Made by a program: the position numbers and the translations under genes. DNA of 64,000 bases from contig NZ_CP065938.1 in NCBI RefSeq assembly GCF_025232395.1, forward strand, positions 372,001 through 436,000, given 5' to 3'. The notes beneath the pieces are model-generated. The model made no database searches and was not told where the DNA came from. It worked only from the letters and a program-made list of their open reading frames with translations. How positions within the stretch are numbered: position 1 is the first letter of the stretch; the number at the start of each line of letters is the position of its first letter. The DNA comes from Taurinivorans muris. Lineage in GTDB: Bacteria > Desulfobacterota > Desulfovibrionia > Desulfovibrionales > Desulfovibrionaceae. Shown one piece after another: positions 185 to 19,462 of the stretch.

Positions 185-649
185 ATGTCTGGAAATCAAA
201 GTTTATCTCATACCAAATGGAATTGCAAATATCATATAGTGTTTGCCCCAAAATATTGTCGTCAAATAATTTATAATAAATTAAAAGAAGATATTGGCAG
301 GATTTTACGTCAGCTCTGTGAACAAAAGAAAGTAGAAATATATGAAGCCAATGCGTGCAAAGACCATATCCACATGTTAGTATCTATTCCTCCCAATCTA
401 AGTGTATCGTCATTTATGTGGTACTTGAAAGGAAAGAGTTCTTTGATGATATTTGATAGACATGCCAATTTAAAATACAAGTATGGCAACAGACATTTTT
501 GGTGCAGGGGCTATTATGTTGATACAGTAGGACGCAATAGAGAAAAAATAGCGGAATACATTCGAAATCAATTGAATGAAGATATAATCAATGACCAAAT
601 GACGTTCAAAGAATACTTTGACCCGTTTACGGGCAGTAAGAATAATTAA
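185..649 (+). CDS. tnpA: IS200/IS605 family Y1 transposase TnpA
   Basis: This single-strand transposase of 154 residues has the usual IS200 length. The HUH motif is visible as H61-I-H63 in CKDHIHMLVSIPP, and the catalytic tyrosine is Y125 in EKIAEYIRNQ. The Y1 REP-like domain fills nearly the whole protein, so the gene looks intact. The start at 185 follows an AGGAGG that sits inside a 16-bp hairpin. No accessory TnpB nuclease gene follows; the stop codon runs straight into the structured right end. Family assignment is firm; current activity is not known. Confidence 0.93.
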   Translation: MSGNQSLSHTKWNCKYHIVFAPKYCRQIIYNKLKEDIGRILRQLCEQKKVEIYEANACKDHIHMLVSIPPNLSVSSFMWYLKGKSSLMIFDRHANLKYKYGNRHFWCRGYYVDTVGRNREKIAEYIRNQLNEDIINDQMTFKEYFDPFTGSKNN

Positions 650-3877: not shown

Positions 3878-4579
3878 ATGAGTGAAATGCAATATGCCAA
3901 ACTATCGACAAATAGTTTACTCAATCAATTAAAACAGTTTTTGACCGCCAATAATTTCCAGGTCGGCGATAAGCTTCCTGCTGAACGTGCGTTGGCGGAA
4001 GAGTTTAAAGTGAGCCGTTCAAGCATTCGAAAAGCTTTAAAAACGTTGGTGGATAAAGGAATAATCGAAAGCAGGCAAGGGGGGGGCAATTATTTGAAAA
4101 TTCCCGATGTCGACCCTATCGCCAGTGAAATTTTGGATGCTGTCAATCGTGAAAGTTCGTTGTTTGAGCAGGTGACCGAATACAGGTATTATCTGGAGCC
4201 GATAATCGCGCGGTTAGCGGCGCAAAAAAGAACGGAAAAGCAACTTAATCAGTTGAAATTAATTGTTTTTGAACAGCAAAGGCGTAAAAGTTTGGAACTT
4301 CCTTTTGACGGCAAGCTGGATGCGAATTTCCATTTGCAGCTGGCGAACTGTACCGGAAATTTTTTGTTTATCGAAACGATGAAAAGGCTCAATAGGATTT
4401 ATTCCGAAGGCAGAAGCGATGAAGTGAGAGATGATGAATGGAAGGAATTTTCCATTAAGACGCATTTGCAAATCATTGATGCGATTGAAAATCGGGATTC
4501 CGATCTTTGTGAGAATTTATTGCGGGAACATATTCTGACTGTGAAGGATAAGCACATTTTTGCAAATAAGAAAGAGTGA
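3878..4579 (+). CDS. GntR family (FadR subfamily) transcriptional regulator
   Basis: This DNA-binding regulator of 233 residues has an N-terminal winged helix (about 12-78; GDKLPAERALAEEFKVSRSS followed by IRKALKTLVDKGIIESRQGGG). An all-helical FCD ligand-binding domain follows (about 95-220; FHLQLANCTGN contains a metal/ligand-site histidine typical of FCD). FadR-type regulators usually sense a small organic acid and repress the genes beside them. It is the first gene of the TTT/M20 operon, 3 bp before the exporter gene, so it most likely controls its own operon. Candidate operator repeats overlap its promoter. The effector is unknown, possibly the transported substrate. Confidence 0.9.
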   Translation: MSEMQYAKLSTNSLLNQLKQFLTANNFQVGDKLPAERALAEEFKVSRSSIRKALKTLVDKGIIESRQGGGNYLKIPDVDPIASEILDAVNRESSLFEQVTEYRYYLEPIIARLAAQKRTEKQLNQLKLIVFEQQRRKSLELPFDGKLDANFHLQLANCTGNFLFIETMKRLNRIYSEGRSDEVRDDEWKEFSIKTHLQIIDAIENRDSDLCENLLREHILTVKDKHIFANKKE

Positions 4580-4582
4580 GTC

Positions 4583-5380
4583 ATGTTGGTACCTGTTGTC
4601 ATATATGCCTGTTTGGGGGCTGTTGCCGGTATTTTGGCGGGCTTGTTGGGGGTCGGCGGCGGAATTGTCATTGTTCCCATGCTCAGTGTCACTTTTGCGA
4701 TGCAAAATTTGCCTCATGAATTGATAATGCATTTGGCATTGGGCACCTCAATGGCGAGCATTATTTTTACTTCTTTTTCCAGCGCGATGGCGCATAATGG
4801 AAGACAGTCCGTCTTATGGAACCTTGTGAAAATAATAACACCAAGCATTATACTAGGAACGTTTTTCGGGTCTTTTATCGCTTCAAAAATTCCGACGCGG
4901 TATTTGCAACTTTTTTTTGCATTGTTTTTATTGGTTGTGGCTTTTCAAATGTTTTTCGGAAAAAATCCGAAAGCGAACAGGCAGCTGCCTGACTCCTTGG
5001 GAATAAGTCTGTTCGGAGCAGTCATAGGTATCATTTCCAGTTTGGTCGGTATCGGAGGCGGCACAGTATCCGTTCCTTTCATGGTTTTTCATAATGTCGA
5101 GCTGCGAAAGGCAATCGGAACATCTTCTGCAATAGGCATTCCTATTGCCGTTGCCGGAGCTGCGGGATATTTGATAAATGGTTTGTCAAATCCTGATTTG
5201 CCTGAATATTCTTTGGGATATATTTATTTGCCTGCTTTATTCGGGTTGGTTTTGTTCAGCTCCCTGACTTCACCCGTAGGCGCCAAACTGACCCATTCAT
5301 TGCCGGTGCATAGGATTAAAAAGTATTTTGCGTTCTTACTCTTGGTTGTCAGTATAAAAATGTTTTTAGAAACAATTTAA
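4583..5380 (+). CDS. TSUP family (TauE/SafE) membrane exporter
   Basis: This 265-residue integral membrane protein belongs to the sulfite exporter TauE/SafE family. It shows the family's internal duplication: GVGGGIVIVPML near residue 30 is echoed by VGIGGGTVSVPFM near 155, each opening a four-helix half. Characterised relatives export sulfite, sulfoacetate or related sulfur anions, but many members are uncharacterised. It starts 3 bp after gntR and is 24 bp before tctB, so it is co-transcribed with an uptake system. This suggests it exports a product or by-product of the imported compound. The substrate is not determined by sequence. Confidence 0.85.
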   Translation: MLVPVVIYACLGAVAGILAGLLGVGGGIVIVPMLSVTFAMQNLPHELIMHLALGTSMASIIFTSFSSAMAHNGRQSVLWNLVKIITPSIILGTFFGSFIASKIPTRYLQLFFALFLLVVAFQMFFGKNPKANRQLPDSLGISLFGAVIGIISSLVGIGGGTVSVPFMVFHNVELRKAIGTSSAIGIPIAVAGAAGYLINGLSNPDLPEYSLGYIYLPALFGLVLFSSLTSPVGAKLTHSLPVHRIKKYFAFLLLVVSIKMFLETI

Positions 5381-5404
5381 TCTTGAAAGGGATAAGGGGG
5401 TCAT

Positions 5405-5890
5405 ATGAAAAACACAGCTGATATTTTTTGCGGGGTATTTTTTCTCCTGATTTGCGCAGTCGCTGTTTGGAGCGTTTCTTCCCTGCCTGAGGCTTCCGGG
5501 GTTGATTATGTCGGTCCTGGAACACTGCCTAAGTTTGCCATCGCCATATTGGCTCTTTGCAGTTGTTATCTTATTTTGAAAGGTTTCATGGTCAAAGCTC
5601 CCAAAAAATATTTACCGGAAAAGAAAGTATTTTTAAAAATTTGTATGGTTTTGATTTTATTTTATCTTTATTTGGCTTCCGTAACATGGCTCGGTGATTA
5701 TTTTTTGAGTATGGAAAATCCCGTTTTTCTTTACGGCGGCGGTTTTGGAATAAGCACCGCACTGTTTCTTATGATTATTTTGCCTTTTTTGGGACGCAAA
5801 AATCCTGTTGAAGTCATTGCGGTTTCCCTTGTCACAACCGCATTGCTGATTGTTGTTTTCGGAATGTTTTTTAAAGTCTTGTTACCATAA
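5405..5890 (+). CDS. tctB: Tripartite tricarboxylate transporter small membrane subunit TctB
   Basis: This 161-residue protein is the small membrane subunit of a TTT carrier. It has a predicted helix at the N-terminus (about 8-28), a second after the conserved VGPGTLPKFAIAILAL stretch, and further hydrophobic helices toward the C-terminus, including ALLIVVFGMFFKVLLP, which is typical of TctB. It partners with TctA, encoded 17 bp downstream, and the periplasmic TctC further along the operon. A second, distinct tctB is at 13906. The specificity of the system cannot be taken from this subunit. Confidence 0.85.
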   Translation: MKNTADIFCGVFFLLICAVAVWSVSSLPEASGVDYVGPGTLPKFAIAILALCSCYLILKGFMVKAPKKYLPEKKVFLKICMVLILFYLYLASVTWLGDYFLSMENPVFLYGGGFGISTALFLMIILPFLGRKNPVEVIAVSLVTTALLIVVFGMFFKVLLP

Positions 5891-5907
5891 CATTTACGGA
5901 GTGGAAT

Positions 5908-7398
5908 ATGTTTGCCGAAGTATTGGAAGGAATTTTAAATGCGATGTCTTTAAGCAGTTTGCTTGCGAATTTAATGGGTGTCGTGTTAGGGATTATTTTT
6001 GGAGCATTGCCCGGACTGACTTCCGCCATGGGAGTAGCCCTGCTTATTCCGTTAACTTTTGGAATGCCCTCTATTGACGCGTTTTCCGCTTTGCTCGGAA
6101 TGTATGTCGGCTCTATCTACGGAGGGTGCATCACTGCGATTTTGGTAGGTACGCCCGGAACCGTCGCGGCGGCGGCAACCATGCTGGAAGGACCCGCACT
6201 AACGGCAAAAGGGGAATCAAGAAGAGGTCTCGATATGGCGACAATAGCTTCCTTTATAGGCGGTATATTCAGTTCCTTGGTTCTTGTCACTATCGCACCG
6301 TTGCTTGCGAAAGCGGCGATGTCTTTCGGCGCGCCTGAATATTTCGCCGTGGCGGTTTTCGGTCTTGCCATTGTGTCTTCCTTATCTTCCGGAGAGGTTA
6401 TCAAAGGGCTTATCGCCATGTCTTTGGGCTTATTGTTTTCATGTATCGGGTTGGACCCTATCACCGGCGACATGCGCAATACCTTTGACAATCCCAATCT
6501 TTTCAACGGGCTTTCACTGGTACCAGTTTTAATCGGTTTATTTGCCGTATCGCAAGTTCTTGTCACCATTGAAGACGTGATTGCGGGAAAAGGAATAAAA
6601 GAAGCGCGGGTAACGCAAAAAGGCTTGACCATAAAAGACATAACAAGCAATACCGTGAATTTTTTCCGCTCCTCGATAATCGGAACAATTATCGGCATTA
6701 TTCCGGCAACCGGGGTAAGCGCCGCGTCATTTCTGGCGTATTCCGAAGCCAAAAGAAATTCTAAAACGCCTGAACAATTCGGCAAGGGGTGTTTGGAAGG
6801 CATTGCCGCAACCGAATCTTCCAATAACGCGGTTTGCGGCGGGGCGTTAATTCCTTTATTAACGCTCGGTGTTCCCGGTGACATTGTCACGGCTATCATG
6901 CTTGGGGCATTGATGATACAGGGGTTGACTCCCGGACCGCTGCTTTTTGTTGAACATCCCGTTACGGTTTACGGTTTGTTCGCGGCTTTTGTCATCGCCA
7001 ATATTTTTATGCTCGGCACCGGATTGCTGACCGTCCGCGTTGCGGGCAAAATCATCGCTATTCCGGGAAATTTGCTTATGCCCGTGGTGCTGACGCTTTG
7101 CGTCGTCGGCGGGTATGCGGTGAACAATTCAACCTTTGACCTTTTGGTTGTCGCAATTTTCGGTACCTTGGGATATTTCATGCAAAAATTCGATATTCCG
7201 CAGCCTCCGTTATTGCTTGCAATGATTTTATCACCGATAGCCGAAACCAATTTCAGAAGGGCATTGTCTATTTCCCAAAATGATTACAGCATATTTTACA
7301 CCAGCCCGGTAACCTGCATTATTTTGTTTGTCAGTTTGTTGATTGTTTGCAATCCGATTATCACAAAGGCTGTCCGTCATATCAAATCCAAAAAATAG
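5908..7398 (+). CDS. tctA: Tripartite tricarboxylate transporter large permease TctA
   Basis: This 496-residue permease has about a dozen hydrophobic segments and moves the substrate using an ion gradient. The family signatures are present: GALPGLTSAMGVALLIPLT near residue 31, YGGCITAILVGTPGT near 70-85, and the internal repeat GIIPATGVSAASFLAYSEAK followed by FGKGCLEGIAATESSNNAV. The second half of the first motif (VGTPGTVAAAATMLEG) departs from the commoner NTPGTPESAATTxDG seen in the other TctA here (14360). The two systems may therefore carry different compounds. It lies 17 bp after tctB and 9 bp before an M20 peptidase. Confidence 0.9.
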   Translation: MFAEVLEGILNAMSLSSLLANLMGVVLGIIFGALPGLTSAMGVALLIPLTFGMPSIDAFSALLGMYVGSIYGGCITAILVGTPGTVAAAATMLEGPALTAKGESRRGLDMATIASFIGGIFSSLVLVTIAPLLAKAAMSFGAPEYFAVAVFGLAIVSSLSSGEVIKGLIAMSLGLLFSCIGLDPITGDMRNTFDNPNLFNGLSLVPVLIGLFAVSQVLVTIEDVIAGKGIKEARVTQKGLTIKDITSNTVNFFRSSIIGTIIGIIPATGVSAASFLAYSEAKRNSKTPEQFGKGCLEGIAATESSNNAVCGGALIPLLTLGVPGDIVTAIMLGALMIQGLTPGPLLFVEHPVTVYGLFAAFVIANIFMLGTGLLTVRVAGKIIAIPGNLLMPVVLTLCVVGGYAVNNSTFDLLVVAIFGTLGYFMQKFDIPQPPLLLAMILSPIAETNFRRALSISQNDYSIFYTSPVTCIILFVSLLIVCNPIITKAVRHIKSKK

Positions 7399-7407
7399 GA
7401 GGAACTT

Positions 7408-8619
7408 ATGGAACTGCGAGATAAAGCGAAACTGCTCTTCGCATGGTTTAATGACCATTATGAGGAAATGCTGGGAAAAATCGAATTGATTGTCAATATG
7501 GATTCTTTTTCCCATGACGGAAAAGATGTGAATGTTCTCGGTGAAACGGTATGCTCATTTTTTGAAGGGACAGATTTTATCACGGAGAAAGCTGCGAAAA
7601 AGGAATGCCCGGAAGATGAGCCGTGGCAAGCGGAGTTGGGAAATGTTTTTACAGCAAGGACCCATAAGAAAGAAGATGGTGCAGGCATTGTTTTTCTGGC
7701 GCATATGGATACCGTATTTCCCAAGGGCACGGCAGGCAAGCGTCCGTTTTATTTCGATAAAGAAAATGACAGGGCCTACGGCCCCGGAATTGTGGATATG
7801 AAATCCGGTTTGATAATGAATATTTTTGTTGCCAGGGCATTGAAAGAATTAGGCTTGGTTTCTTGTCCGATCACATTGACGTTTTCGCCTGATGAAGAAA
7901 TCGGTTCCCCCTCGGCTTTGCCGGTTTTGCAGGATGAACTGAAAAATGCATTGGTTTCTTTTTGTTCCGAGCCGGGATATGTAGGAAACGGGGTTACGAT
8001 CGAACGAAAGGGATCCGGACATATTTTATTGGAAATTACGGGTAAATCTTCTCATGCGGGCAGAGCTTATGCGGAAGGGGCTTCCGCAATTTTGGAGCTG
8101 GCGCATAAAATTTTGGCATTTGACAAATATGTTGACTTATCAAGGGACAAAACCGTCAATACCGGAATCATAAAAGGCGGCACTTCTGCCAATTCTGTCG
8201 CTCCCAACGCAATGGCAAGGATACATCTTACGTACAAAACCTTGGAGGAAGGCGAGCGGCTTGTCGAAGCGATAAAAGAAGAAGCGGCAAAAACATATGT
8301 GGAAGGAACCCGCACTTCTCTTAGCGGCGGTTTGCGCTTGCCGCCTTTGGTTCCAAATGCGGGTGCGAAAAAATTATATGAATTTGTAAAAAACGCAGGG
8401 GAAATGATACAGTATGTCCCGTTTGTCGAAGCGTCAAAAGGTGCAGCCGAATCCGGGTTTTGCTCAAGTGTTTTAAAAATTCCCAGTATTTGCAGTATGG
8501 GACCTGAGGGAGGTTTTTTGCACAATGAAAAGGAATATATCATTCCGTCGACCATTATTCCGCGCTGTGAATTAATTGCGCTGGCAAGCATACAGGCAGC
8601 CGATTATTTCCATAAATAA
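7408..8619 (+). CDS. M20 family metallopeptidase (carboxypeptidase G2-like), copy 1
   Basis: This 403-residue enzyme is of the M20 dizinc amidohydrolase type that cleaves terminal amino acids or related amines from N-acyl conjugates. All expected site residues are visible: H99 and D101 (AHMDT), bridging D130 (YGPGIVDMKSG), the glutamate pair E163-E164 (SPDEEIGS), E188 (SEPG) and C-terminal H372. The lid/dimerisation domain lies between about 195 and 305 (GKSSHAGRAYAEG). No signal peptide is seen, so it should act in the cytoplasm after import. A paralogue is three genes downstream. The substrate is unknown; an amide or peptide conjugate brought in by the TTT system is the simplest idea. Confidence 0.88.
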   Translation: MELRDKAKLLFAWFNDHYEEMLGKIELIVNMDSFSHDGKDVNVLGETVCSFFEGTDFITEKAAKKECPEDEPWQAELGNVFTARTHKKEDGAGIVFLAHMDTVFPKGTAGKRPFYFDKENDRAYGPGIVDMKSGLIMNIFVARALKELGLVSCPITLTFSPDEEIGSPSALPVLQDELKNALVSFCSEPGYVGNGVTIERKGSGHILLEITGKSSHAGRAYAEGASAILELAHKILAFDKYVDLSRDKTVNTGIIKGGTSANSVAPNAMARIHLTYKTLEEGERLVEAIKEEAAKTYVEGTRTSLSGGLRLPPLVPNAGAKKLYEFVKNAGEMIQYVPFVEASKGAAESGFCSSVLKIPSICSMGPEGGFLHNEKEYIIPSTIIPRCELIALASIQAADYFHK

Positions 8620-8634
8620 CAACAGGAGAGTATT

Positions 8635-9609
8635 ATGAAAAAGATGAACAAATTGTTAGCCGTGTTCCTTGGGATAAGCTTATTGGGCTTTGGTGCGCCC
8701 GATATGGCCAAAGCCGCTTATCCTAACCGTCCCGTAACCATTATCATTCCTTTCGGACCAGGAGGGGCTGTTGATATCGCGGCGAGAATTTTAGCGGAAT
8801 ATTTTCAAAATAAACATCAAATCACTTTGAATATCGTATGCAAAGGTGGCGGGGCGGGAGCGCCTGCAATGCTTGATGTCGCAAGGGCAAGACCAGACGG
8901 GTACACATTCGGTTTTCCTGCCTTGGCGACATTTTCCGCAACGCCTCAAATCAGGAAAACCGGATACACTATCGGTGATTTCAAAGCGGTGGCGCAAGTG
9001 ACAAATATGTGGCTCAGCCTTTCCGTCAATAAGGATTCCGGCATTGCGAATTTAAACGAATTTTTTGAAATGGCGAAAAAAGAACCCGGAAAGTACAATT
9101 ATGCCACCCATGGCGCTCTTTCGACCCAACGTATTTTCATGACGAATATTTTAAAAGCGTACCCTGATGTTAATTTGCCCCATATCAGTTATACAAGCGG
9201 ACACGACGTATCGACAGCCCTTCTCGGCAAGCATGTCAGCGCCGCTTTTGGCGTGACAATCAATCAGAAACCGTATGTCGATTCCGGTGACTTCACAATG
9301 ATTGCGGTAAGCAGCGACAAAAGGCTTGAAGAATTTCCGGATGTTCCGACGTTTAAAGAACAGCTGGGGGATAACGACACGTTTGTTTTCGCTTCTTCCC
9401 ATGGATTGCTCGCACCAAAAAGAACGCCTGATTCCTGTATTATTGCGATGCAGGATTTAATCAAAGAAGCATTGGAAGACAGCTCCGTACAGGAAAAATT
9501 CAAGAAAGCGGGGCTTACCGCGGATTATTTGCCTGCTGCCGAATTTCAAGTTGTCATGGAAACTATTTGGGATTATATCGGAAAAACGTTAAAAGAAAAT
9601 AATTTTTAA
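8635..9609 (+). CDS. tctC: TTT substrate-binding protein TctC (Bug family), copy 1
   Basis: This 324-residue periplasmic binding protein has a signal peptide (residues 1-28, cleaved near AKA). The mature start YPNRPVTIIIPFGPGGAVDIAARI is the hallmark Bug-family ligand-loop region. Further family features are LDVARARPDGYTFGF and the C-terminal VPTFKEQLG stretch. Bug proteins bind small carboxylates and occasionally other anions and deliver them to TctAB, here encoded upstream in the same operon. Reading stops 50 bp before the next gene, and a strong hairpin lies between. Confidence 0.9.
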   Translation: MKKMNKLLAVFLGISLLGFGAPDMAKAAYPNRPVTIIIPFGPGGAVDIAARILAEYFQNKHQITLNIVCKGGGAGAPAMLDVARARPDGYTFGFPALATFSATPQIRKTGYTIGDFKAVAQVTNMWLSLSVNKDSGIANLNEFFEMAKKEPGKYNYATHGALSTQRIFMTNILKAYPDVNLPHISYTSGHDVSTALLGKHVSAAFGVTINQKPYVDSGDFTMIAVSSDKRLEEFPDVPTFKEQLGDNDTFVFASSHGLLAPKRTPDSCIIAMQDLIKEALEDSSVQEKFKKAGLTADYLPAAEFQVVMETIWDYIGKTLKENNF

Positions 9610-9610
9610 A

Positions 9611-9648
9611 AAATAAGGCAAGCCGTTTTATGACGGTTTGCCTTATTT
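9611..9648 (+). promoter_or_regulatory. Strong intercistronic hairpin
   Basis: AAATAAGGCAAGCCGT (9611-9626) pairs with ACGGTTTGCCTTATTT (9633-9648) at 15 of 16 positions over a 6-nt loop. It directly follows the tctC stop and precedes the next gene's ribosome site. There is no long T-run beyond the stem, so partial termination or protection of the upstream message is more likely than full termination. That would raise TctC relative to the downstream genes. Confidence 0.6.
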
Positions 9649-9659
9649 GCGAGGTTGCT

Positions 9660-10709
9660 ATGAAAAATTTAAAATTTTTTTCATTTATACTGGCATGTAT
9701 TGTTTCCGTATTTTTTACCTTTCCGGTCCATGCCCGGGATTTGCCCGGAATAAAAACAGCATGGCTTGGTGAGCATGAAAAATTCATTGTCTGGTATGCG
9801 CAAAAGCACGGGTGGGATGAAGAGCACGGTTTTAAACTGGACGTATTGAATTTTGATTCAGGCAAGAGCATTCTTGACGGAATGAAAGCCTATGGCTGGG
9901 AAATTGCCGGCATGGGCGCCGTTCCCGCATTGACCGGATATTTCAATAAGGAAATAAAAATTATTGCGATAGCGAATAATGAGTCAAATTCCAATATGCT
10001 CTATGTGCGAAACAACAGCCCTCTTTTGCGGCAAAAAGGATATGATCCAGCATATCCCGATGTTTACGGCTCCCCTGAACTTGTTCGTAATGCGAAAATA
10101 CTGTGTGCTAAAGGTTCTTCTGCCCATTACTTGGTGGATTCATGGCTGAAACTGTTTGATTTGACGGAAAAAGACGTCAAAATGCAGTTTATGGAAATGA
10201 CACCCGCTTTCGGAGCTTTTAAAGGCGGTTTCGGGGATATTGCCGGAGTATGGTCCCCATATGTTTTTGAAGCCGATAAAATGGGGTTCCAAGCGATAGC
10301 CGATGGCGAGACCTGCAATGTTTTTCAGCCGGTTCTCATTGTTGTGAATGTTGAATATGCTGAAAAAAATCCGCAGCTGGTGACGGCGTTTTTAAAAATG
10401 TATATGCAAGGCATAGAATTGCTGCGAACCAAGCCGTTGGAAGATCTCGCCCCTGAATATCAAACGTTTTTTAAAGAAGAATTGAATTTGGATATAACGC
10501 GGGACGAGGCTCTTTTTGATTTGCGCAATCACCCTGTTTTCACCCTTGACGAGCAAAAAGTCATGTTCAATGATAAAAATCAAACAAGCGTGGTTTATGA
10601 TTGGTTAAACGAAATTGTGGAGTTTTACAAGGCGAATAACGGTGTCATGACGGAAACGAAAGAGAAACTCAATGCGCTTGACCCGACGTGGATCAACCAA
10701 ATTCAGTAA
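9660..10709 (+). CDS. Orphan SsuA/TauA-like (NMT1-type) substrate-binding protein
   Basis: This 349-residue protein resembles the periplasmic binding proteins of sulfonate, nitrate and related ABC importers. The start at 9660 is preferred because it gives a clean signal peptide (MKNLKFFSFILACIVSVFF, cleaved near VHA) and follows a GAGG; an in-frame start at 9630 lies in the loop of a hairpin. Fold features include WLGEHEKFIVWYAQKHG at the mature N-terminus and GSSAHYLVDSWLKLF in the middle. No ABC permease or ATPase is nearby, so it is an orphan in a TTT operon. It may feed TctAB, act as a sensor, or use an importer elsewhere. Family call is fairly firm; ligand unknown. Confidence 0.75.
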   Translation: MKNLKFFSFILACIVSVFFTFPVHARDLPGIKTAWLGEHEKFIVWYAQKHGWDEEHGFKLDVLNFDSGKSILDGMKAYGWEIAGMGAVPALTGYFNKEIKIIAIANNESNSNMLYVRNNSPLLRQKGYDPAYPDVYGSPELVRNAKILCAKGSSAHYLVDSWLKLFDLTEKDVKMQFMEMTPAFGAFKGGFGDIAGVWSPYVFEADKMGFQAIADGETCNVFQPVLIVVNVEYAEKNPQLVTAFLKMYMQGIELLRTKPLEDLAPEYQTFFKEELNLDITRDEALFDLRNHPVFTLDEQKVMFNDKNQTSVVYDWLNEIVEFYKANNGVMTETKEKLNALDPTWINQIQ

Positions 10710-10712
10710 GTT

Positions 10713-11939
10713 ATGGCTATGCATGCGAAAATAATCGAAGATTTTTTTTCTGATAAGGAAGCGCAGATGCTCAATATGCTGGAGCATATTGTTAATTTGT
10801 GTTCCTTTACCGGTGACAGGGAAGGGGTTGAAAAGGTCGGGCGGTATTTAATGGATTTTCTTTCCGCCCATGGTTTTTATACGAAGCAAATTGAAAAAAC
10901 GGAAATTCCGGAAAACGAGGCATGGCTCAATACGCATTGTGATCCGTTTGTTGCAAAATCCCATCCCTTTGATTCGGAGGCGGGAATTGTTCTTGCGGGA
11001 CATCTTGATACGGTTTTTCCCCGTGCATATTGCAGGGAGCGCAGGTTTAGGATTGATTTTGAAAAGGATAGGGCTTACGGTCCCGGAGTCGCGGATATGA
11101 AAGCGGGATTGATTGCGAATATCTTTGCGGCTCTGGCATTGAAAGAAAACAATTTGCTTGTTTGCCCGATTACCTTAGCTTTTTCAACAGATGAAGAACT
11201 TGGCTCTCCGGTTTCCTCACGGGCGATAAAACAATATGCCGCAGGGGCGAGGGCAGCTATCAATGCCGAACCCGGTGGCATCGGCGGTTTTGTAACCCTT
11301 TCCCGCAAAGGGTCCGGGCATATCACATTAAATGTAAAAGGAAAGTCTGCGCATGCCGGAAGGAATTATCAGGACGGCGCCTCGGCTATTTTGGAATTAG
11401 CCCATAAAACCCTTGAGATTGATAAATTTCTCGACATTTCTAAAAGCATTACTGTCAATACGGGACTTGTCGAGGGGGGAATATCTGCAAATTCCGTTGC
11501 TCCCGCGGCGAGTTCCAAAATCCATATCACCTATCAAACCCGCGAACAAGGGGAAGAGCTTGTTAAAAATATTCGGACTGTCGCCAATTCGGTTTTTATT
11601 GAGGGAACAGAAACGGAAATGACGGGCGGTTTGCGTTTATATCCATTGGAGCGGAGCGAAAAAGGGGATATGTTATTTGAATTGGCAAGAGAAGCGGGAA
11701 AATGTTTCGGAATGGAACTGCGGGGACAGCATTATGAAAGCGCTTCGGATTCCGGTTTTTATTCCTCTGTTTTAAATATTCCCACAATTTGCTGTATGGG
11801 ACCGGAAGGGGACAACATCCATACGCCGGATGAATATTTAATCCCCTCAACCATTTTAAAACGGAGCAAATGCATTGCATTGACCGCCTTATATGCCGCT
11901 CGGAAATTTAAAAAGCCATGCAGCAGTGAATTTCATTGA
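10713..11939 (+). CDS. M20 family metallopeptidase (carboxypeptidase G2-like), copy 2
   Basis: This 408-residue paralogue of the peptidase at 7408 shares most motifs. Metal and catalytic residues are H97 and D99 (GHLDT), D128 (YGPGVADMKAG), E161-E162 (STDEELGS), E186 (AEPG) and H370. The lid domain carries GKSAHAGRNYQDGASAI. It starts 3 bp after the binding-protein stop, so it is translationally close-coupled; a second ATG 6 bp further is possible. Two such enzymes in one operon suggest two steps on one conjugate, related substrates, or a heteromer. It is the last gene of the operon; no clear terminator follows. Confidence 0.87.
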   Translation: MAMHAKIIEDFFSDKEAQMLNMLEHIVNLCSFTGDREGVEKVGRYLMDFLSAHGFYTKQIEKTEIPENEAWLNTHCDPFVAKSHPFDSEAGIVLAGHLDTVFPRAYCRERRFRIDFEKDRAYGPGVADMKAGLIANIFAALALKENNLLVCPITLAFSTDEELGSPVSSRAIKQYAAGARAAINAEPGGIGGFVTLSRKGSGHITLNVKGKSAHAGRNYQDGASAILELAHKTLEIDKFLDISKSITVNTGLVEGGISANSVAPAASSKIHITYQTREQGEELVKNIRTVANSVFIEGTETEMTGGLRLYPLERSEKGDMLFELAREAGKCFGMELRGQHYESASDSGFYSSVLNIPTICCMGPEGDNIHTPDEYLIPSTILKRSKCIALTALYAARKFKKPCSSEFH

Positions 11940-12083: not shown

Positions 12084-12782
12084 ATGGAAAACCAATGGTA
12101 TTGGAAGAATAAGGATTTTTTTGAAGCGTTTGACGCTCAGAAAGAGAAGTTTTTGCGTGTTTCCCAAAAAATGGAAATAGATAAAAATACGATGATATTT
12201 TTTGAAGAGGATTTGGGGGATTGTTGTTTTTATCTGTCAAAAGGTTTGGTGAGAATTTTCAGTGTTTCGGATTCAGGAAAAGAGCCTATTTTTTTCCTGC
12301 GCAGGCAGGGGGATTTGTTCGGATTGTCGGAAGTTTTGGGAAATGTGCCGCGTAAGGCGAACGCACAGGCTTTAACAAGCTGCGAATTGTATAAAATACA
12401 CAGTGCCGAATTGGAAAAATTATTAAAAGAAGATTATCTGCTGGCCCGGCGGATCATATCCTTATTAGGTGCGAGGGTGCGGTATTTGGGAGATTATGTC
12501 AGTAATTTAATGACGTGCACGGTTAAAATACGACTGGTTAAAGTATTCATTGCATTAATTTATGACAGCATCCCTTCCGCCGAGGATTGGAATAATCCCG
12601 TTACGATACCTATTAAAATTTCACAGGAACAGCTTGCTTCCATGACCGGCTCGACGCAGCCGACCATTTCTGATTTATTGCAGGAACTACAAAAGGACGG
12701 AATCATAACGATAGCAAGAAAGCAAGTTTGCGTGTGTAAACCGTATATGCTTTTAAATATTATCGAATCGTGCGAAATATGA
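12084..12782 (+). CDS. Crp/Fnr family transcriptional regulator
   Basis: This 232-residue regulator has an N-terminal cyclic-nucleotide-type beta barrel (GLVRIFSVSDSGKEPIFFLRRQGDLFG region), a long dimerisation helix, and a C-terminal Crp-type helix-turn-helix (residues about 180-205: ISQEQLASMTGSTQPTISDL). The start at 12084 has a GAGG 7 nt upstream; an in-frame ATG at 12021 has none. No N-terminal cysteine set typical of the oxygen sensor FNR is seen, so the ligand is open. It has its own terminator and lies just before the second TTT operon, whose promoter carries a matching-type palindrome. It probably activates that operon. Confidence 0.85.
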   Translation: MENQWYWKNKDFFEAFDAQKEKFLRVSQKMEIDKNTMIFFEEDLGDCCFYLSKGLVRIFSVSDSGKEPIFFLRRQGDLFGLSEVLGNVPRKANAQALTSCELYKIHSAELEKLLKEDYLLARRIISLLGARVRYLGDYVSNLMTCTVKIRLVKVFIALIYDSIPSAEDWNNPVTIPIKISQEQLASMTGSTQPTISDLLQELQKDGIITIARKQVCVCKPYMLLNIIESCEI

Positions 12783-12814
12783 TGAAAAAACAGAGCAAGA
12801 TCGGAGAATATCGG

Positions 12815-12843
12815 GCTGACAGTATTTGTGTCAGCTTTTTTTT
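12815..12843 (+). terminator. Rho-independent terminator of the Crp/Fnr gene
   Basis: GCTGACA (12815-12821) pairs with TGTCAGC (12829-12835) over 7 nt and is followed by eight T residues. It separates the regulator transcript from the tctC operon. Confidence 0.85.
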
Positions 12844-12858
12844 ATTAAATTCCATTTT

Positions 12859-12901
12859 TATCATCTGGCTGATAGAACGGAAATTTTTAATTGAGTATAA
12901 A
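12859..12901 (+). promoter_or_regulatory. Crp-type palindrome and promoter of the second TTT operon
   Basis: TATCA-N6-TGATA (12859-12874) is a perfect 5-6-5 palindrome of the spacing used by Crp-type dimers. A -10-like TATAAA lies at 12896-12901, with no good -35 box. If transcription starts 7 nt later, near 12908, the palindrome is centred at about -41.5, the classical class II activator position. The neighbouring Crp/Fnr protein is the obvious candidate. The start site is predicted, not measured. Confidence 0.6.
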
Positions 12902-12930
12902 AGAGTCATACATCAAAAAGGAGAAAGATT

Positions 12931-13893
12931 ATGAGTTTGAAAAAAATTCTTGTTTCCTGTTTTGTGCTGGGTATGTTTTTGGCTTTTGGTGCTGATCAGG
13001 CTGAAGCTGAAAACTACCCAAACCACCCTGTAAAACTTTTAACCATGACCGGTCCGGGGGCTCAAATTGATTTGGTGGCGCGCTCATTTGCTGAACAATT
13101 AAAAAATATCTTGGGGCAACCCGTATTGGTGACCAATATGCCGGGCGGTTCACATGGCAGCGTTATGGCTTCTGAATTGTCAACAAGCCCGAAGGATGGA
13201 TATACGGTTGGTATTTCCGCGACAGGCGCGTTTAATTATTCGCCGTATTTCATAAAAACAAAATATACGAAAGATGATTTTGATTATTTAAGTTTAATTG
13301 CTTTAAATCAAAGCGGTATCATAGCCCGTCCCGACAAGCCTTGGAATACTTTAAAAGAAGCCTTCGCGTGGGCGAAAAAAGAGGAAAAAGGTTTGACGTA
13401 TATGTTCCAAGGCTCTGACGACAGGGACGCAATGGCGAGAATTGCAAAACAAGAAGGCATAAATCTGTCTTTAATGCCAAGTACGGGAGGTCCTTCCATC
13501 ATAACCGCCGTAATGGGCGGGCATGCTGATTTGGGACATGTTGGAGCGATATTGTTTGATTATGTTGAAAGCGGAAAACTGAAATTATTGGCGGCGACAA
13601 CTCCCGTCCGCTTAAATCCTTTATCTGATGTTCCGACACTGAAAGAGCAGGGTTGGGATGAGTCGGTTGAAATGTATGTTGTTTTTGTAACGCCGAAAGG
13701 TTTGCCCGCTGATGTGAGAGCAAAATTGGCGGATGCCACGCAAAAAATCGTTAACGATGAACAATTTATCGATTTTGTCGGGAAGAAATTAAAAATGGCT
13801 CCGGTTGATTCAACGAGCGAATACGCTGTGAGATATATCGAAGAAAGTTCCCTCAGGAATAAGGCGATCATAGGACAACGTGAACAACAATAA
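12931..13893 (+). CDS. tctC: TTT substrate-binding protein TctC (Bug family), copy 2
   Basis: This 320-residue secreted binding protein has a signal peptide of about 26 residues ending at AEA. The mature start NYPNHPVKLLTMTGPGAQIDLVARS aligns with the Bug signature, but the usual PFxxGG loop is replaced by MTGPGAQ, which touches the ligand-binding loop. TSPKDGYTVGISATG and the VPTLKEQGWDES region are standard. AAGGAG precedes the ATG. It heads an operon with tctB and tctA at 12-13 bp spacings and two redox genes, so the ligand should be the substrate or precursor of the AprA-like enzyme. Confidence 0.9.
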   Translation: MSLKKILVSCFVLGMFLAFGADQAEAENYPNHPVKLLTMTGPGAQIDLVARSFAEQLKNILGQPVLVTNMPGGSHGSVMASELSTSPKDGYTVGISATGAFNYSPYFIKTKYTKDDFDYLSLIALNQSGIIARPDKPWNTLKEAFAWAKKEEKGLTYMFQGSDDRDAMARIAKQEGINLSLMPSTGGPSIITAVMGGHADLGHVGAILFDYVESGKLKLLAATTPVRLNPLSDVPTLKEQGWDESVEMYVVFVTPKGLPADVRAKLADATQKIVNDEQFIDFVGKKLKMAPVDSTSEYAVRYIEESSLRNKAIIGQREQQ

Positions 13894-13905
13894 AACGAGG
13901 GAATT

Positions 13906-14346
13906 ATGTCAATATATCAACGGGATATAATCGGATATGCAATAATTCTCATACTCTCTTGCTCATTATATTTTTGGGGAATACCGGCGTATTCCCCGGA
14001 ATATCCAGGGTATGGCGTTCCGGCGTCCTTTATGCCCGATATTGCGGCTGTTTGTATGGGGGGATTGAGCATTTTGGGATTGGTTCAAACAGTTAAAAAG
14101 CGAAACAAAGAAACAAAAGCCGGCAAAATCAATTGGATTCATTTGATAAAGTTTTTTGTTCCATGTTTATTGTTAATGCCTGCCATGGCGACAATAGGAT
14201 ATTTAATTTCCGGAATGCTGTTTTTATCTCTCATTCAATTCTTTTGCGGACAAAGGAACGTGTTGTGTTTGGTTCTTGTTTCCATAGTGCCTGTTGCCGT
14301 GTTCTATGCATTGATGGTGTATGCTTTGGGTGTGCCTTTGCCATAA
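13906..14346 (+). CDS. tctB: Tripartite tricarboxylate transporter small membrane subunit TctB, copy 2
   Basis: This 146-residue membrane protein has four likely helices: DIIGYAIILILSCSLYFWG at the N-terminus, one after FMPDIAAVCMGGLSILGLV, and a C-terminal pair ending MVYALGVPLP. The C-terminal P-L-P ending is usual for TctB. It lies between tctC and tctA with 12-13 bp gaps. It is too divergent from the TctB at 5405 to be a simple recent duplicate. Confidence 0.85.
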   Translation: MSIYQRDIIGYAIILILSCSLYFWGIPAYSPEYPGYGVPASFMPDIAAVCMGGLSILGLVQTVKKRNKETKAGKINWIHLIKFFVPCLLLMPAMATIGYLISGMLFLSLIQFFCGQRNVLCLVLVSIVPVAVFYALMVYALGVPLP

Positions 14347-14359
14347 ATAAGGAGTTCGT

Positions 14360-15841
14360 ATGGTTGAAAGTATGTTAGCAGGCTTTATGGATTCCCTGCA
14401 ATGGACAAATTGTCTGTTTGTGCTTGCGGGAGTGATTTTGGGGGTTATCGCAGGGGCAATTCCCGGAGTGAACGGAACGATGGCGATAGCGTTATGCATA
14501 CCCCTTTCTTATTATATGTCGGCAGCTGCCGCCATCGGCTTTTTGGTTGGTCTGAACAAAGGGGCGTTTTTTGGCGGTTCAATTTCCGGAATATTGCTCA
14601 ATACTCCCGGAACGCCTGAATCCGCCGCGACGACGTGGGACGGGTACCCTTTGGCGGAACAGGGAAAAGGCGAAAAAGCCTTGAAAATGGCATTGTTTTC
14701 TTCTGTGACCGGTGATGCGTTCGCAACCATGGTTTTGGTTTTGGTTGCCGCTCCTTTGGCGGCTGTCGCTCTGTATATGGGACCGCCTGAAATTTTCGCC
14801 CTTATTTGTATGGCTATGACCATTATCGCAGGGCTCGGCAACGGGTCCATGCTGCGCGGTTTGATTGCCGCGTGCATGGGCTTGCTTATCGGTTCTGTCG
14901 GTATTGAATCTGTTTCAGCCATGCCCCGCTTGACATTCGGAATAACAGCGCTGGAAAGGGGAATTTCGCTTATTCCTATCGGTATCGGCATGTTGGCGTT
15001 TTCGGAAATCATTCTTCAGCTGGAAAGAAAATTCATTCATGGTGATACTGCCTGTTCCATGTTTTTTTCAGAAAAAAAAGAAGATAGGAGCATTACGGCA
15101 AAAGAATACGGTTCCTGTATGAAAACATTGATCCGTTCTTCATTGGCGGGAACCGTCGTCGGGGCTTTGCCCGGGCTCGGAGCGCCGGTCGCGTCTTTTT
15201 TTGCTTATGACCGTGCCGTAAAAAAATCAAACATGCCGGAAACATTCGGAAAAGGCAATATCGAAGGCATTGCGGCTTCGGAAGCAGCCAACAGCGCTGT
15301 TGTCGCTTCAAGCTTAATTCCTTTATTCACGCTTGGTATTCCCGGAAATATGGCTTCGGCATTGTTGGTCGGCGCTTTCGTTATTCATGGTATGATACCG
15401 GGACCTTTGATGTTCGAGCAAAATGCCCAATTTATTTATTCCATATACGGCAGTTTGATTTGGGCGAATATTTTTTTGCTGGGAGTCGGACTGTTCAGTT
15501 TGAAAGCCTCTTGCCGTTTGGTGCAGGTTCCTTCCGATATTTTGTATCCGGTCATTATTTTCACGTGTATTATGGGTGCTTATCTTTCCCAGTACGCCGT
15601 TTTTGATGTGACGCTGATGCTTTGTTTCGCCATTTTGGCATATTTTATGAAAAAATTCGATTATTCCTTTATTTGCCTGATAATCGGATTTATTTTAGCA
15701 CCTATTTGGGAAACGTCTTTACAGCAACTGATTATTTCTTCTGAACAAAATCCTTTCATGATTTTTCAAAGACCCGTGGCTCTTGCATTGCTGGGGCTGT
15801 CCCTTTGGGTGACGTTCAGGGCTGTAAGGAATAAGAAATAA
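14360..15841 (+). CDS. tctA: Tripartite tricarboxylate transporter large permease TctA, copy 2
   Basis: This 493-residue multi-helix permease carries the standard motifs: GAIPGVNGTMAIALCIPLS near residue 35, FFGGSISGILLNTPGTPESA near 72-90, and the repeat GALPGLGAPVASFFAYDRA with FGKGNIEGIAASEAANSAV. It therefore follows the family consensus more closely than the TctA at 5908. It should form an ion-coupled uptake system with the tctC and tctB products encoded upstream. The next gene, 12 bp on, encodes the AprA-like flavoprotein. Confidence 0.92.
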   Translation: MVESMLAGFMDSLQWTNCLFVLAGVILGVIAGAIPGVNGTMAIALCIPLSYYMSAAAAIGFLVGLNKGAFFGGSISGILLNTPGTPESAATTWDGYPLAEQGKGEKALKMALFSSVTGDAFATMVLVLVAAPLAAVALYMGPPEIFALICMAMTIIAGLGNGSMLRGLIAACMGLLIGSVGIESVSAMPRLTFGITALERGISLIPIGIGMLAFSEIILQLERKFIHGDTACSMFFSEKKEDRSITAKEYGSCMKTLIRSSLAGTVVGALPGLGAPVASFFAYDRAVKKSNMPETFGKGNIEGIAASEAANSAVVASSLIPLFTLGIPGNMASALLVGAFVIHGMIPGPLMFEQNAQFIYSIYGSLIWANIFLLGVGLFSLKASCRLVQVPSDILYPVIIFTCIMGAYLSQYAVFDVTLMLCFAILAYFMKKFDYSFICLIIGFILAPIWETSLQQLIISSEQNPFMIFQRPVALALLGLSLWVTFRAVRNKK

Positions 15842-15853
15842 AAGGAGTGTATT

Positions 15854-17614
15854 ATGGCAAATTTTAGTGCGAAAAGAATGCGGCAATGGGCGCCGAAATC
15901 CGTAAGCGAAATTGAACGTGTTGAAATTACGTGCGACATTCTTGTCATCGGCGGCGGAAATGCCGGATGTTTCGTTGCCGTCGAAGCTGCGAAAAAAGAA
16001 CCTGCCGCAAAAGTCGTCATTATGGAAAAAGCCGAAATTATGCGTTCCGGAGCATGTTCCGCCGGTATGGACGCTATCAATACCTACATTCCTAAAGGAA
16101 AAACTCCTGAAGATTTGGTTCGCTGGAGCAGGGAACAGGTTGGCGGGGGACCGCTGCGGGAAGACTTGGCTTTATCCAATGCGCGGGAATTGAATGAAGC
16201 TGTTGAAGATTTAGAGCGCTGGGGACTGCCTGTTTTACGGGATGAATACGGAAATGTGCGGTATAGGGGCAAGTGGGATATTTCCATTCACGGAGAACAA
16301 TTAAAACCTATTATGGCGGAAAAAGCCCTTGAAAGCGGAGCAGATGTTTATAACCGTGTTACGGCGACAGCGTTATTGATGGAAAAGGATAAATGTGTCG
16401 GGGCGATAGGTCTGGGGATTCGTGACGGCAAACTATATGTTTTTAAAGCAAAAGCCACCGTTCTTTCAACAGGCGGCGCCGCCACCTTGTATAAATCGTA
16501 CACGGCGGATTCAACGGACTGCGGCGCGCAAATATGGATGTGCCCTTATTGCGTCGGAACCGGTTATGCGATTGGTTTCAGGCAGGGCGCCGAACTGACA
16601 AGCTTGGAGCAGCGCTGGGTGGCGACACGCACAAAAGATTTTTGCGGACCTGTCGATACCATTTCCCAAGCTTACGGGGCTGCGATTATTAATGCGAAGG
16701 GCGAAAGGGTTATGAGCCGGTATGAGCATTTAGGCGGTGAAAATGCTCCCCGGTATATCCGTGCGAACGCTCCTATGGAGGAATGGCTGGCAGGGCGCGG
16801 TCCGTGTTATTGTGATACGACGCATATGTCTGAGGAACAAACAAAACACATGCTCGAAGATTATCTCAACGAACGCCCGTCTTTTGTTTTGTTTTTAGCA
16901 GGCAGGGGACAAAATCCGGCAAAAGAACCCATTGAAATTTACGGATCGGACCCGTATATTGTGGGCGGCCATACGGGAAGCGGTTTTTGGGTTGATGAAA
17001 ACCGCATGACAACGGTAAAAGGTTTGTTTGCCGCCGGTGAAACAGCAGGCGGAAATCCCAATAAATTTGTCGGCGGCTGCTGTGCGGAAGGAAAATTGGC
17101 GGCGCGCGGAGCGTTGGAATATATCAAAACTCATCCTGTTGATTTGGATACGCTTACTTGTGAAGAGCAAATCAAAAAAGAAACAGAGCGGGTATTTATG
17201 CCCATGCTTGCGAAAGATGAAGCCGGCATTACTGCCGTGGAGATGAAAGAAAGGCTGCAAAGGCTGATGGATGAATATGCGGGAGGAATAAGCCAATTTT
17301 ACAGAACAAATGAGGAACGCTTGGATTATGCCTTAAAACATATTGCAATACTGAAAGAGCAGTTTCAGTATCTTCGGGCACAGGATTTACATGAGTTGAT
17401 GCAAGTTTTGGAAACAATGGATAGGGTTGAGGTTGCCGAAGCAGTTATCCTTCACTTGAAAGCGCGCAAGGAAACCCGTTGGGCGGGTTGGCAGACCCGT
17501 TCCGATTATCCTGAACGGGATGATAAGAATTATAATTGTTTCATTGAAACGAAAAAAGATCCTGAAACCGGTGAAATTTCCGTATTCACCAGACCTTATG
17601 AAAGAATTGTATAA
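15854..17614 (+). CDS. AprA-like FAD-dependent oxidoreductase, probable reductase
   Basis: This 586-residue flavoprotein belongs to the fumarate reductase/succinate dehydrogenase superfamily and is closest in pattern to adenylylsulfate reductase AprA. The FAD Rossmann motif is VIGGGNAG (31-38). AprA-like blocks follow: MRSGACSAGMDAINTY (63-78), GKWDISIHGEQLKPI (139-153), R254 in LEQRWVATRTKD, H373 in GGHTGSGFW and KFVGGCCAEGK. R254 and H373 fall where AprA has substrate-site residues. True AprA is about 660 residues, so this is shorter. No signal peptide is present. It pairs with an AprB-like ferredoxin 15 bp downstream and sits behind a TTT importer. It likely reduces, or oxidises, the imported compound; which one is unknown. 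Confidence 0.75.
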   Translation: MANFSAKRMRQWAPKSVSEIERVEITCDILVIGGGNAGCFVAVEAAKKEPAAKVVIMEKAEIMRSGACSAGMDAINTYIPKGKTPEDLVRWSREQVGGGPLREDLALSNARELNEAVEDLERWGLPVLRDEYGNVRYRGKWDISIHGEQLKPIMAEKALESGADVYNRVTATALLMEKDKCVGAIGLGIRDGKLYVFKAKATVLSTGGAATLYKSYTADSTDCGAQIWMCPYCVGTGYAIGFRQGAELTSLEQRWVATRTKDFCGPVDTISQAYGAAIINAKGERVMSRYEHLGGENAPRYIRANAPMEEWLAGRGPCYCDTTHMSEEQTKHMLEDYLNERPSFVLFLAGRGQNPAKEPIEIYGSDPYIVGGHTGSGFWVDENRMTTVKGLFAAGETAGGNPNKFVGGCCAEGKLAARGALEYIKTHPVDLDTLTCEEQIKKETERVFMPMLAKDEAGITAVEMKERLQRLMDEYAGGISQFYRTNEERLDYALKHIAILKEQFQYLRAQDLHELMQVLETMDRVEVAEAVILHLKARKETRWAGWQTRSDYPERDDKNYNCFIETKKDPETGEISVFTRPYERIV

Positions 17615-17629: not shown

Positions 17630-17953
17630 ATGCCGCCAATTGTGAATTTAAAAAAATGTACAGGCTGTCAGGGCAGGGAAGAATCGTACTGCGAAAATAT
17701 CTGCCCCGGAGATTTAATGGCTGTAAATCCTGAAACTGGAAAGGCGTATTGCCGTTCAGCAAAAGAATGCTGGGATTGCATGTCGTGCGTGAAAGCGTGT
17801 CCCAATGGGGCATTGGAAACGAAAATACCGTATCAAATCGGATATTATAAAGCGACGCTTCGTCCCATCATGGGAAAAAATACCGTAACGTGGAAAAGTA
17901 AGGATATTTATGGCAATGAAAGCACGTATAAAACCAAAAACAGGAATGCATGA
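17630..17953 (+). CDS. AprB-like 2x[4Fe-4S] ferredoxin subunit
   Basis: This 107-residue protein has two cluster-binding cysteine sets, C10/C13/C21/C25 and C47/C50/C53/C57. CTGCQGREESYCENICP, with its 7-residue insert, and ECWDCMSCVKACP match AprB, and W48 corresponds to the tryptophan placed between cluster and flavin in APS reductase. Classical AprB is about 150-165 residues; the long C-terminal tail that wraps around AprA is missing here. It should carry electrons to or from the flavoprotein. It is the last gene of the operon before a strong terminator. Confidence 0.8.
   Translation: MPPIVNLKKCTGCQGREESYCENICPGDLMAVNPETGKAYCRSAKECWDCMSCVKACPNGALETKIPYQIGYYKATLRPIMGKNTVTWKSKDIYGNESTYKTKNRNA

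Positions 17954-18043: not shown

Positions 18044-19462
<1,419 letters not shown>

What the first reader, a model, noticed from the sequence alone, without database searches (positions are those of the whole stretch)
12859..12908. Crp-type palindrome at the class II activator position
TATCA-N6-TGATA is centred at about -41.5 relative to a start predicted from TATAAA, with no -35 box, exactly as expected for Crp/Fnr activation. The gene for a Crp/Fnr protein lies directly upstream. The half-site TATCA differs from both CRP (TGTGA) and FNR (TTGAT), so it may define a separate specificity.
Basis: partly seen in the sequence, partly recalled or inferred. Interest (0 to 1): 0.65.

Follow-up and report, generated by a model that had tools for sequence, protein, structure and literature searches.

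The report
Conserved Crp/Fnr activator site, new specificity
A short palindromic DNA switch in front of an import-and-reductase operon of a gut sulfur bacterium is conserved across many related bacteria together with the neighbouring regulator gene, at the exact spot where such regulators turn genes on, and it spells a recognition word different from the textbook ones.

Summary
The palindrome is real (TATCATCTGGCTGATA, 12859-12874). Within this genome it is a one-off: 4 exact copies, the other 3 inside ORFs. Relatives show that it is functional. The Crp/Fnr gene upstream (12084-12782) is a conserved neighbour of an operon for an anion transporter and an AprAB-like reductase. All 37 of 149 family genomes with that AprA relative have the regulator. 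A TATCR-N6-YGATA-type site was listed in 50 of 62 fetched relatives; the 12 others are short contigs or variants. A -10-like TA sits 21 nt after the site in 33 of 53 sites, putting the centre at -41.5, the class II position. The middle base (A or G) tends to follow the recognition helix, on few evolutionary changes. Best reading: operator of the 12084 regulator, a local class II activator of tctCBA-aprAB-like. Binding, effector and start site are untested. The closest prior work (Desulfovibrionales Crp/Fnr regulons, 2013) is not held, so an earlier prediction cannot be excluded.

The parts
12084..12782 (+). Crp/Fnr-family regulator (REG), 232 aa; recognition helix G189-S-T-Q-P-T-I-S-D197
   Evidence: PF00027 and PF13545 above cut-off; the start at 12084 fits relatives that align from residue 1; below the curated cut-offs for CRP, FNR, NtcA, FixK
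12813..12837 (+). Intrinsic-terminator-like hairpin plus T run after the regulator gene, separating it from the operon
   Evidence: consensus match; 2 found in the region, 1.2 expected; sequence
12859..12874 (+). Operator TATCATCTGGCTGATA, centre 12866.5, predicted at -41.5
   Evidence: conserved in relatives; leave-one-out matrix score 25.8 bits
12896..12901 (+). Predicted -10 element TATAAA, 21 nt after the operator; predicted start near 12908
   Evidence: TA at offset 21 in 33 of 53 operator sites; no -35 match better than 3 of 6
12931..13893 (+). tctC-like solute-binding protein, first gene of the controlled operon
   Evidence: PF03401 E 1.3e-39
13906..14346 (+). tctB-like membrane subunit
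   Evidence: PF07331 E 1.4e-13
14360..15841 (+). tctA-like membrane subunit
   Evidence: PF01970 E 2.6e-134
15854..17614 (+). AprA-like flavoprotein reductase subunit
   Evidence: NF005331 above cut-off, TIGR02061 aprA below cut-off; best solved relative 8a8o, PAPS reductase alpha
17630..17953 (+). AprB-like 4Fe-4S subunit, last gene of the operon
   Evidence: PF00037; TIGR02060 aprB below cut-off

Best explanation
12859-12874 is the operator of the Crp/Fnr-family regulator encoded at 12084-12782. When the regulator is switched on, most likely by binding a small ligand in its beta-roll domain (inferred), its dimer sits on TATCATCTGGCTGATA centred at -41.5, in place of a -35 element, and helps RNA polymerase start at about 12908. 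This turns on tctCBA-aprA-like-aprB-like as a unit. It is a local, essentially one-operon switch, not a global regulon. Shown here: conservation of regulator, operator, operon and operator-to-minus-10 spacing, and a tendency of operator and recognition helix to vary together. Inferred: binding, direction of regulation (activation) and ligand. The ligand is most likely the imported anion or a product of it.
For: (1) Regulator and operon are linked: 56 of 62 fetched relatives (window and duplicate stretch L051 not counted) carry aprA-like and aprB-like in the fetched stretch, with a TTT, DASS or TauE-type transporter in nearly all. All 37 of 149 family genomes with the AprA relative (E <= 1e-250) are among the 41 with the regulator (compared by hand). 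(2) Operator: 43 exact TATCR-N6-YGATA sites in 776,491 bases of these loci; 40 lie 32-231 nt upstream of a cluster gene and 3 between the regulator and the next transporter gene; the reversed-sequence control gives 0. (3) Spacing: TA at exactly 21 nt after the 16-mer in 33 of 53 sites, 8 at offset 22, 6 at offset 23, at most 4 at any other offset from 8 to 35. (4) No -35: best match 2-3 of 6 in 32 of 33 sites with TA at offset 21. (5) Pairing of helix and base: helices with Gln at window position 193 go with TATCG in 29 of 29 loci with a listed site; helices with Pro go mostly with TATCA. A third helix type, TVCQ, has TATCG-N6-CGAAG in all 3 loci. (6) The same order of parts, regulator then operator then transporter, recurs in other families of the phylum (L089, L090).
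Against: No binding, expression or 5'-end data were available. The helix/base pairing rests on few evolutionary events: 2 changes of the helix residue on the tree and no significant independent-pair test. It also has exceptions: L057 and L077 have Pro with TATCG, and L080, L100, L049, L078 and L085 are mixed or degenerate. Five of 19 genera with sites (g17, g46, g68, g79, g131) lack TA at offsets 21-22. Twelve of 62 loci had no listed site; six of these are contigs that end too early or lack the operon (L054, L074, L079, L092, L094, L102), and six have variants that I recognised only afterwards by eye.
Confidence: 0.86

Rival explanations
1. The 12084 regulator binds this operator but represses the operon, blocking the promoter until a ligand releases it.
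For: Position alone does not prove the sign; the site covers the -35 region.
Against: No recognisable -35 that a repressor would need to mask is seen at the sites examined, and many -10 elements are weak, as in TAGACC or TACTCC. A centre at -41.5 is the standard class II activator position (established knowledge).
Confidence: 0.08
2. The site is bound by another Crp/Fnr protein of the cell, and the neighbouring gene is incidental.
For: Four more Crp/Fnr-type genes exist in the genome above the Pfam cut-off; a sixth hit, below it, is a GntR-like gene by eye.
Against: The AprA-like gene occurs only with this particular regulator, and operator variants go with this regulator's helix types. The other paralogues were not tested for co-occurrence.
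Confidence: 0.04
3. The palindrome is a chance match or a transcribed hairpin without regulatory role.
For: In this genome alone it is near chance.
Against: Conservation across genera and families with fixed spacing to the -10 and a reversed control of 0; it lies upstream of the predicted start, so it would not be in the mRNA.
Confidence: 0.02

Closest known systems
CRP (cAMP receptor protein) class II promoters
   Same: Crp/Fnr fold, N6-spaced palindrome, site centred at -41.5 in place of a -35 element
   Different: Half-site TATCR instead of TGTGA (recalled); the protein scores 60.7 against a CRP cut-off of 266
FNR
   Same: Crp/Fnr family; class II activation of anaerobic respiratory operons (recalled)
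   Different: FNR site TTGAT-N4-ATCAA (recalled); score 35 against a cut-off of 228; local, one-operon regulon here
CprK (chlorophenol-sensing activator of dehalorespiration genes; recalled, not tested)
   Same: Works alike in outline: a Crp/Fnr protein encoded beside a reductase operon that it activates
   Different: Different operator; ligand here unknown; homology to CprK not specifically tested
Predicted Crp/Fnr regulons of Desulfovibrionales (Kazakov et al. 2013, J Bacteriol; RegPrecise)
   Same: Same order of bacteria and same regulator family; title seen in the reference list of PMC3840689
   Different: Paper not held; whether it contains this motif is not known to me

Membership tests
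Crp/Fnr superfamily | cNMP-binding-type beta-roll domain plus Crp-type HTH | tested here: met
   PF00027 66.2 bits (cut-off 27.5), PF13545 44.7 bits (cut-off 27)
CRP equivalog | NCBIfam NF008732 score above cut-off | tested here: not met
   60.7 against 266
FNR subfamily | NCBIfam NF008365 score above cut-off | tested here: not met
   35 against 228
NtcA equivalog | TIGR03697 score above cut-off | tested here: not met
   67.5 against 244.95
Class II Crp/Fnr-dependent promoter | Operator centred near -41.5 with a -10 but no -35 | tested here: met
   Sequence geometry in the window and TA at offset 21 in 33 of 53 sites; the start itself is predicted
Class II Crp/Fnr-dependent promoter | Measured dependence on the regulator and a measured start | not testable with these tools
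   no expression or binding data
Canonical dissimilatory APS reductase AprA | TIGR02061 score above cut-off | tested here: not met
   393.7 against 641.75, while the broader NF005331 is met, 596.1 against 557
Substrate-sensing CprK-like regulator | Direct binding of the reductase substrate | not testable with these tools
   ligand unknown; conserved R73, E83, R90 in the effector domain

The most novel reading that the evidence does not exclude
The regulator defines a Crp/Fnr subfamily with its own operator code (TATCR-N6-YGATA, the middle base tuned by the recognition helix). It serves as the substrate sensor of an unrecognised anaerobic reduction pathway in which an anion brought in by interchangeable TTT, DASS or TauE-type transporters is reduced by an AprAB-like enzyme. 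In the probable host, Taurinivorans muris, the AprAB read as part of an incomplete sulfate-respiration pathway would then be an intact, inducible system for another acceptor.
Probability: 0.4. Interest if true: 0.75.

Novelty: new member of a known kind. Interest (0 to 1): 0.5.

Why it matters
It gives a precise, cheaply testable regulator-operator pair for a conserved but uncharacterised transporter-reductase cluster of this phylum, including a probable mouse gut sulfidogen. The natural operator variants that go with helix variants make Crp/Fnr DNA recognition at one base directly testable. A reporter driven by this operator could reveal the unknown substrate of the AprAB-like enzyme by screening ligands.

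Tried and rejected
A wide regulon for the motif: rejected for this genome. Exact copies elsewhere lie inside ORFs. Of 20 two-mismatch hits, 17 lie in stop-to-stop frames of at least 270 aa; the other 3, at genome positions 586487, 683003 and 1206104, were not followed. The loose pattern over 149 family genomes gave many scattered hits and no second recurrent target that I could see; I did not test it formally.

A one-residue code (Gln or Pro at position 193 sets G or A): weakened by L057 and L077, which have Pro with TATCG, and by the mixed sites, and only 2 helix changes occur on the tree. Cys or Thr at position 191 fits no better, since L073 and L077 have Thr with TATCG.

A prior report of the motif: searches in the held open-access library listed none that I recognised as such (search listings only, with passages read in PMC3840689, PMC5443562 and PMC10507020); the most relevant paper is not held. 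One search was wasted on a mistyped spacer (N5).

Full report
What is there. At 12859-12874 the + strand reads TATCATCTGGCTGATA, an inverted repeat TATCA-N6-TGATA. It lies 21 nt after an intrinsic-terminator-like hairpin (12813-12837) that closes the Crp/Fnr gene at 12084-12782, and 56 nt before a tctC-like gene at 12931. TATAAA at 12896-12901 is the obvious -10; a start 7 nt later is 12908, so the site centre is at -41.5. The best -35 match at 16-18 nt spacing is TAGAAC, 3 of 6.

Chance. One exact match in 64 kb was reached by 5 of 100 shuffles. In the whole 2,172,708-base genome there are 4 places against 1 for the reversed pattern, and the other 3 fall inside open reading frames. From this genome alone the case would be weak, and no regulon is visible: a looser consensus with up to 2 mismatches gave 20 further places, 17 of them inside frames of at least 270 aa.

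The neighbourhood. Pfam gives TctC, TctB, TctA, a fumarate-reductase/APS-reductase-type flavoprotein and a 4Fe-4S protein downstream. The flavoprotein passes the NCBIfam model NF005331 but not the curated AprA model TIGR02061 (393.7 against 641.75), and the small subunit fails TIGR02060. Its best solved relative is the alpha subunit of a PAPS reductase of Methanothermococcus (8a8o), ahead of APS reductase. It is the only such gene in the genome: the next best are about 29% identical.

Conservation of the unit. The regulator was found in 41 of 149 genomes of the family at E <= 1e-15, and at E <= 1e-30 in 64 of 348 of the order and 18 of 395 of a phylum sample, with families other than the window's own represented. 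I fetched 63 stretches around it, two of which (L051, L097) are the same place, so 62 count. In 56 of 62 the aprA-like and aprB-like genes are in the fetched stretch, with a DASS-type transporter in 31, tctA in 14 and a TauE-type protein in 10 (names by Pfam, for one DASS and two TauE examples). Gene order varies: regulator last in the operon, divergent from tctC (L059, L060, L083, L084), or first as in the window (L089, L090). All 37 of 149 family genomes with the AprA relative at E <= 1e-250 are among the 41 with the regulator (compared by hand). The four regulator hits without it are G113 (an 80% complete genome of the same species), G003, and the two weakest hits, G022 and G105.

Conservation of the operator. 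The same palindrome is upstream of tctC in L042, L043, L059 and L060 and nearly so in L041 and L049. In relatives with a different recognition helix a count of all inverted repeats of 5 bases found TATCG-N6-CGATA in 19 of 22 upstream regions; the next repeat, which overlaps it, was in 7. Over all loci there are 43 exact TATCR-N6-YGATA sites in 776,491 bases: 40 lie 32-231 nt before a cluster gene and 3 between the regulator and the following transporter gene. The reversed sequences have 0. With near matches chosen by hand, 50 of 62 loci have a listed site (52 sites; 53 with the window). Of the 12 others, six are on contigs that end too early or do not carry the operon (L054, L074, L079, L092, L094, L102). 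L081 has the same degenerate site as its near-twin L056; L066, L069 and L103 share TATCG-N6-CGAAG; L093 and L096 have looser versions. A weight matrix built from the relatives' sites without the window's scores the window site 25.8 bits; apart from its own reverse complement (15.95) the next place is at 7.65, and the reversed window reaches 12.6.

Promoter geometry. Counting TA at each distance after the 16-mer, 33 of 53 sites have it at 21, 8 at 22, 6 at 23, and no other offset from 8 to 35 has more than 4. That is the distance in the window. Fourteen of 19 genera have at least one site with TA at 21 or 22; g17, g46, g68, g79 and g131 do not. Of the 33 sites with TA at 21, 32 have at best a 2- or 3-of-6 match to a -35 hexamer. 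This is the signature of class II activation (established knowledge of CRP and FNR), although the sign of regulation is not measured.

Specificity. The helix of the window protein reads G189-S-T191-Q192-P193-T-I-S-D. Twenty-nine of 29 loci with Gln at 193 and a listed site have G at the last half-site base on both sides. With Pro at 193 there are 12 A/A, 3 with A on one side only, 3 mixed G/A, 3 G/G and 1 other. TVCQ helices go with a changed right half. On a tree built without the DNA-binding domain the helix residue changes only twice and the base three times, and the independent-pairs test has no power, so this is a suggestive pairing, not a demonstrated code.

What it probably does. The regulator keeps invariant or near-invariant charged residues in the effector domain (R73 62/63, E83 63/63, R90 63/63). 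Together with the conserved link to anion-type transporters and a reductase, this suggests that it senses the imported anion or a product and then activates uptake and reduction; this is inference. It would work like CprK (recalled), without being shown to belong to that group.

The organism. The regulator is 100% identical in a contig of Desulfovibrio sp. UBA8003 (L010). According to passages of PMC10507020 that I read, UBA8003 belongs to Taurinivorans muris, whose strain LT0009 has a complete 2.2 Mbp genome; the window is therefore probably from that species. The same passages say that LT0009 has AprAB but no Sat or QmoAB and does not respire sulfate, and that AprAB is among the transcribed genes whose proteins were not detected with taurine, sulfolactate or thiosulfate. 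Since the genome has only this AprA-like gene, those statements probably concern this operon, and they fit an operon waiting for another inducer. I did not see per-gene expression data.

Literature. Searches of the held library listed no description of this motif or pairing. The paper most likely to contain a prediction, on Crp/Fnr regulons in Desulfovibrionales (listed in the references of PMC3840689), is not held. Novelty is therefore rated conservatively.

Noticed in passing
window 3878-11939: A second transporter region just upstream: a GntR-like regulator, a TauE-like protein and a TctBA-like pair (by eye), with TctC, two M20-type peptidases (one by Pfam) and an NMT1-like binding protein; the two transporter systems stand side by side.
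   Followed up: no
window 18044-19462 (-): A FumC/aspartase-type lyase gene converges on the aprB-like gene (PF00206, PF10415); a link to the operon's substrate is conceivable.
   Followed up: no
window 185-649 and 1230-1880: Two transposase-like ORFs (named by eye) near the window's left end.
   Followed up: no
L087 and L088, oriented with the regulator on +: 4409 and 5407; 5932 and 6758: Two operators each, one just before the regulator gene and one after it: likely autoregulation plus operon control in this genus.
   Followed up: partly
L087 8496-9179 (oriented): A second, distant relative of the regulator (27% identity) lies between the transporter and the aprA-like gene.
   Followed up: no
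just upstream of the operator in L042, L043, L049, L059, L060, L078, L080: A recurrent TTTTCACGA-like stretch precedes the operator; possibly an UP element or a second protein site.
   Followed up: no
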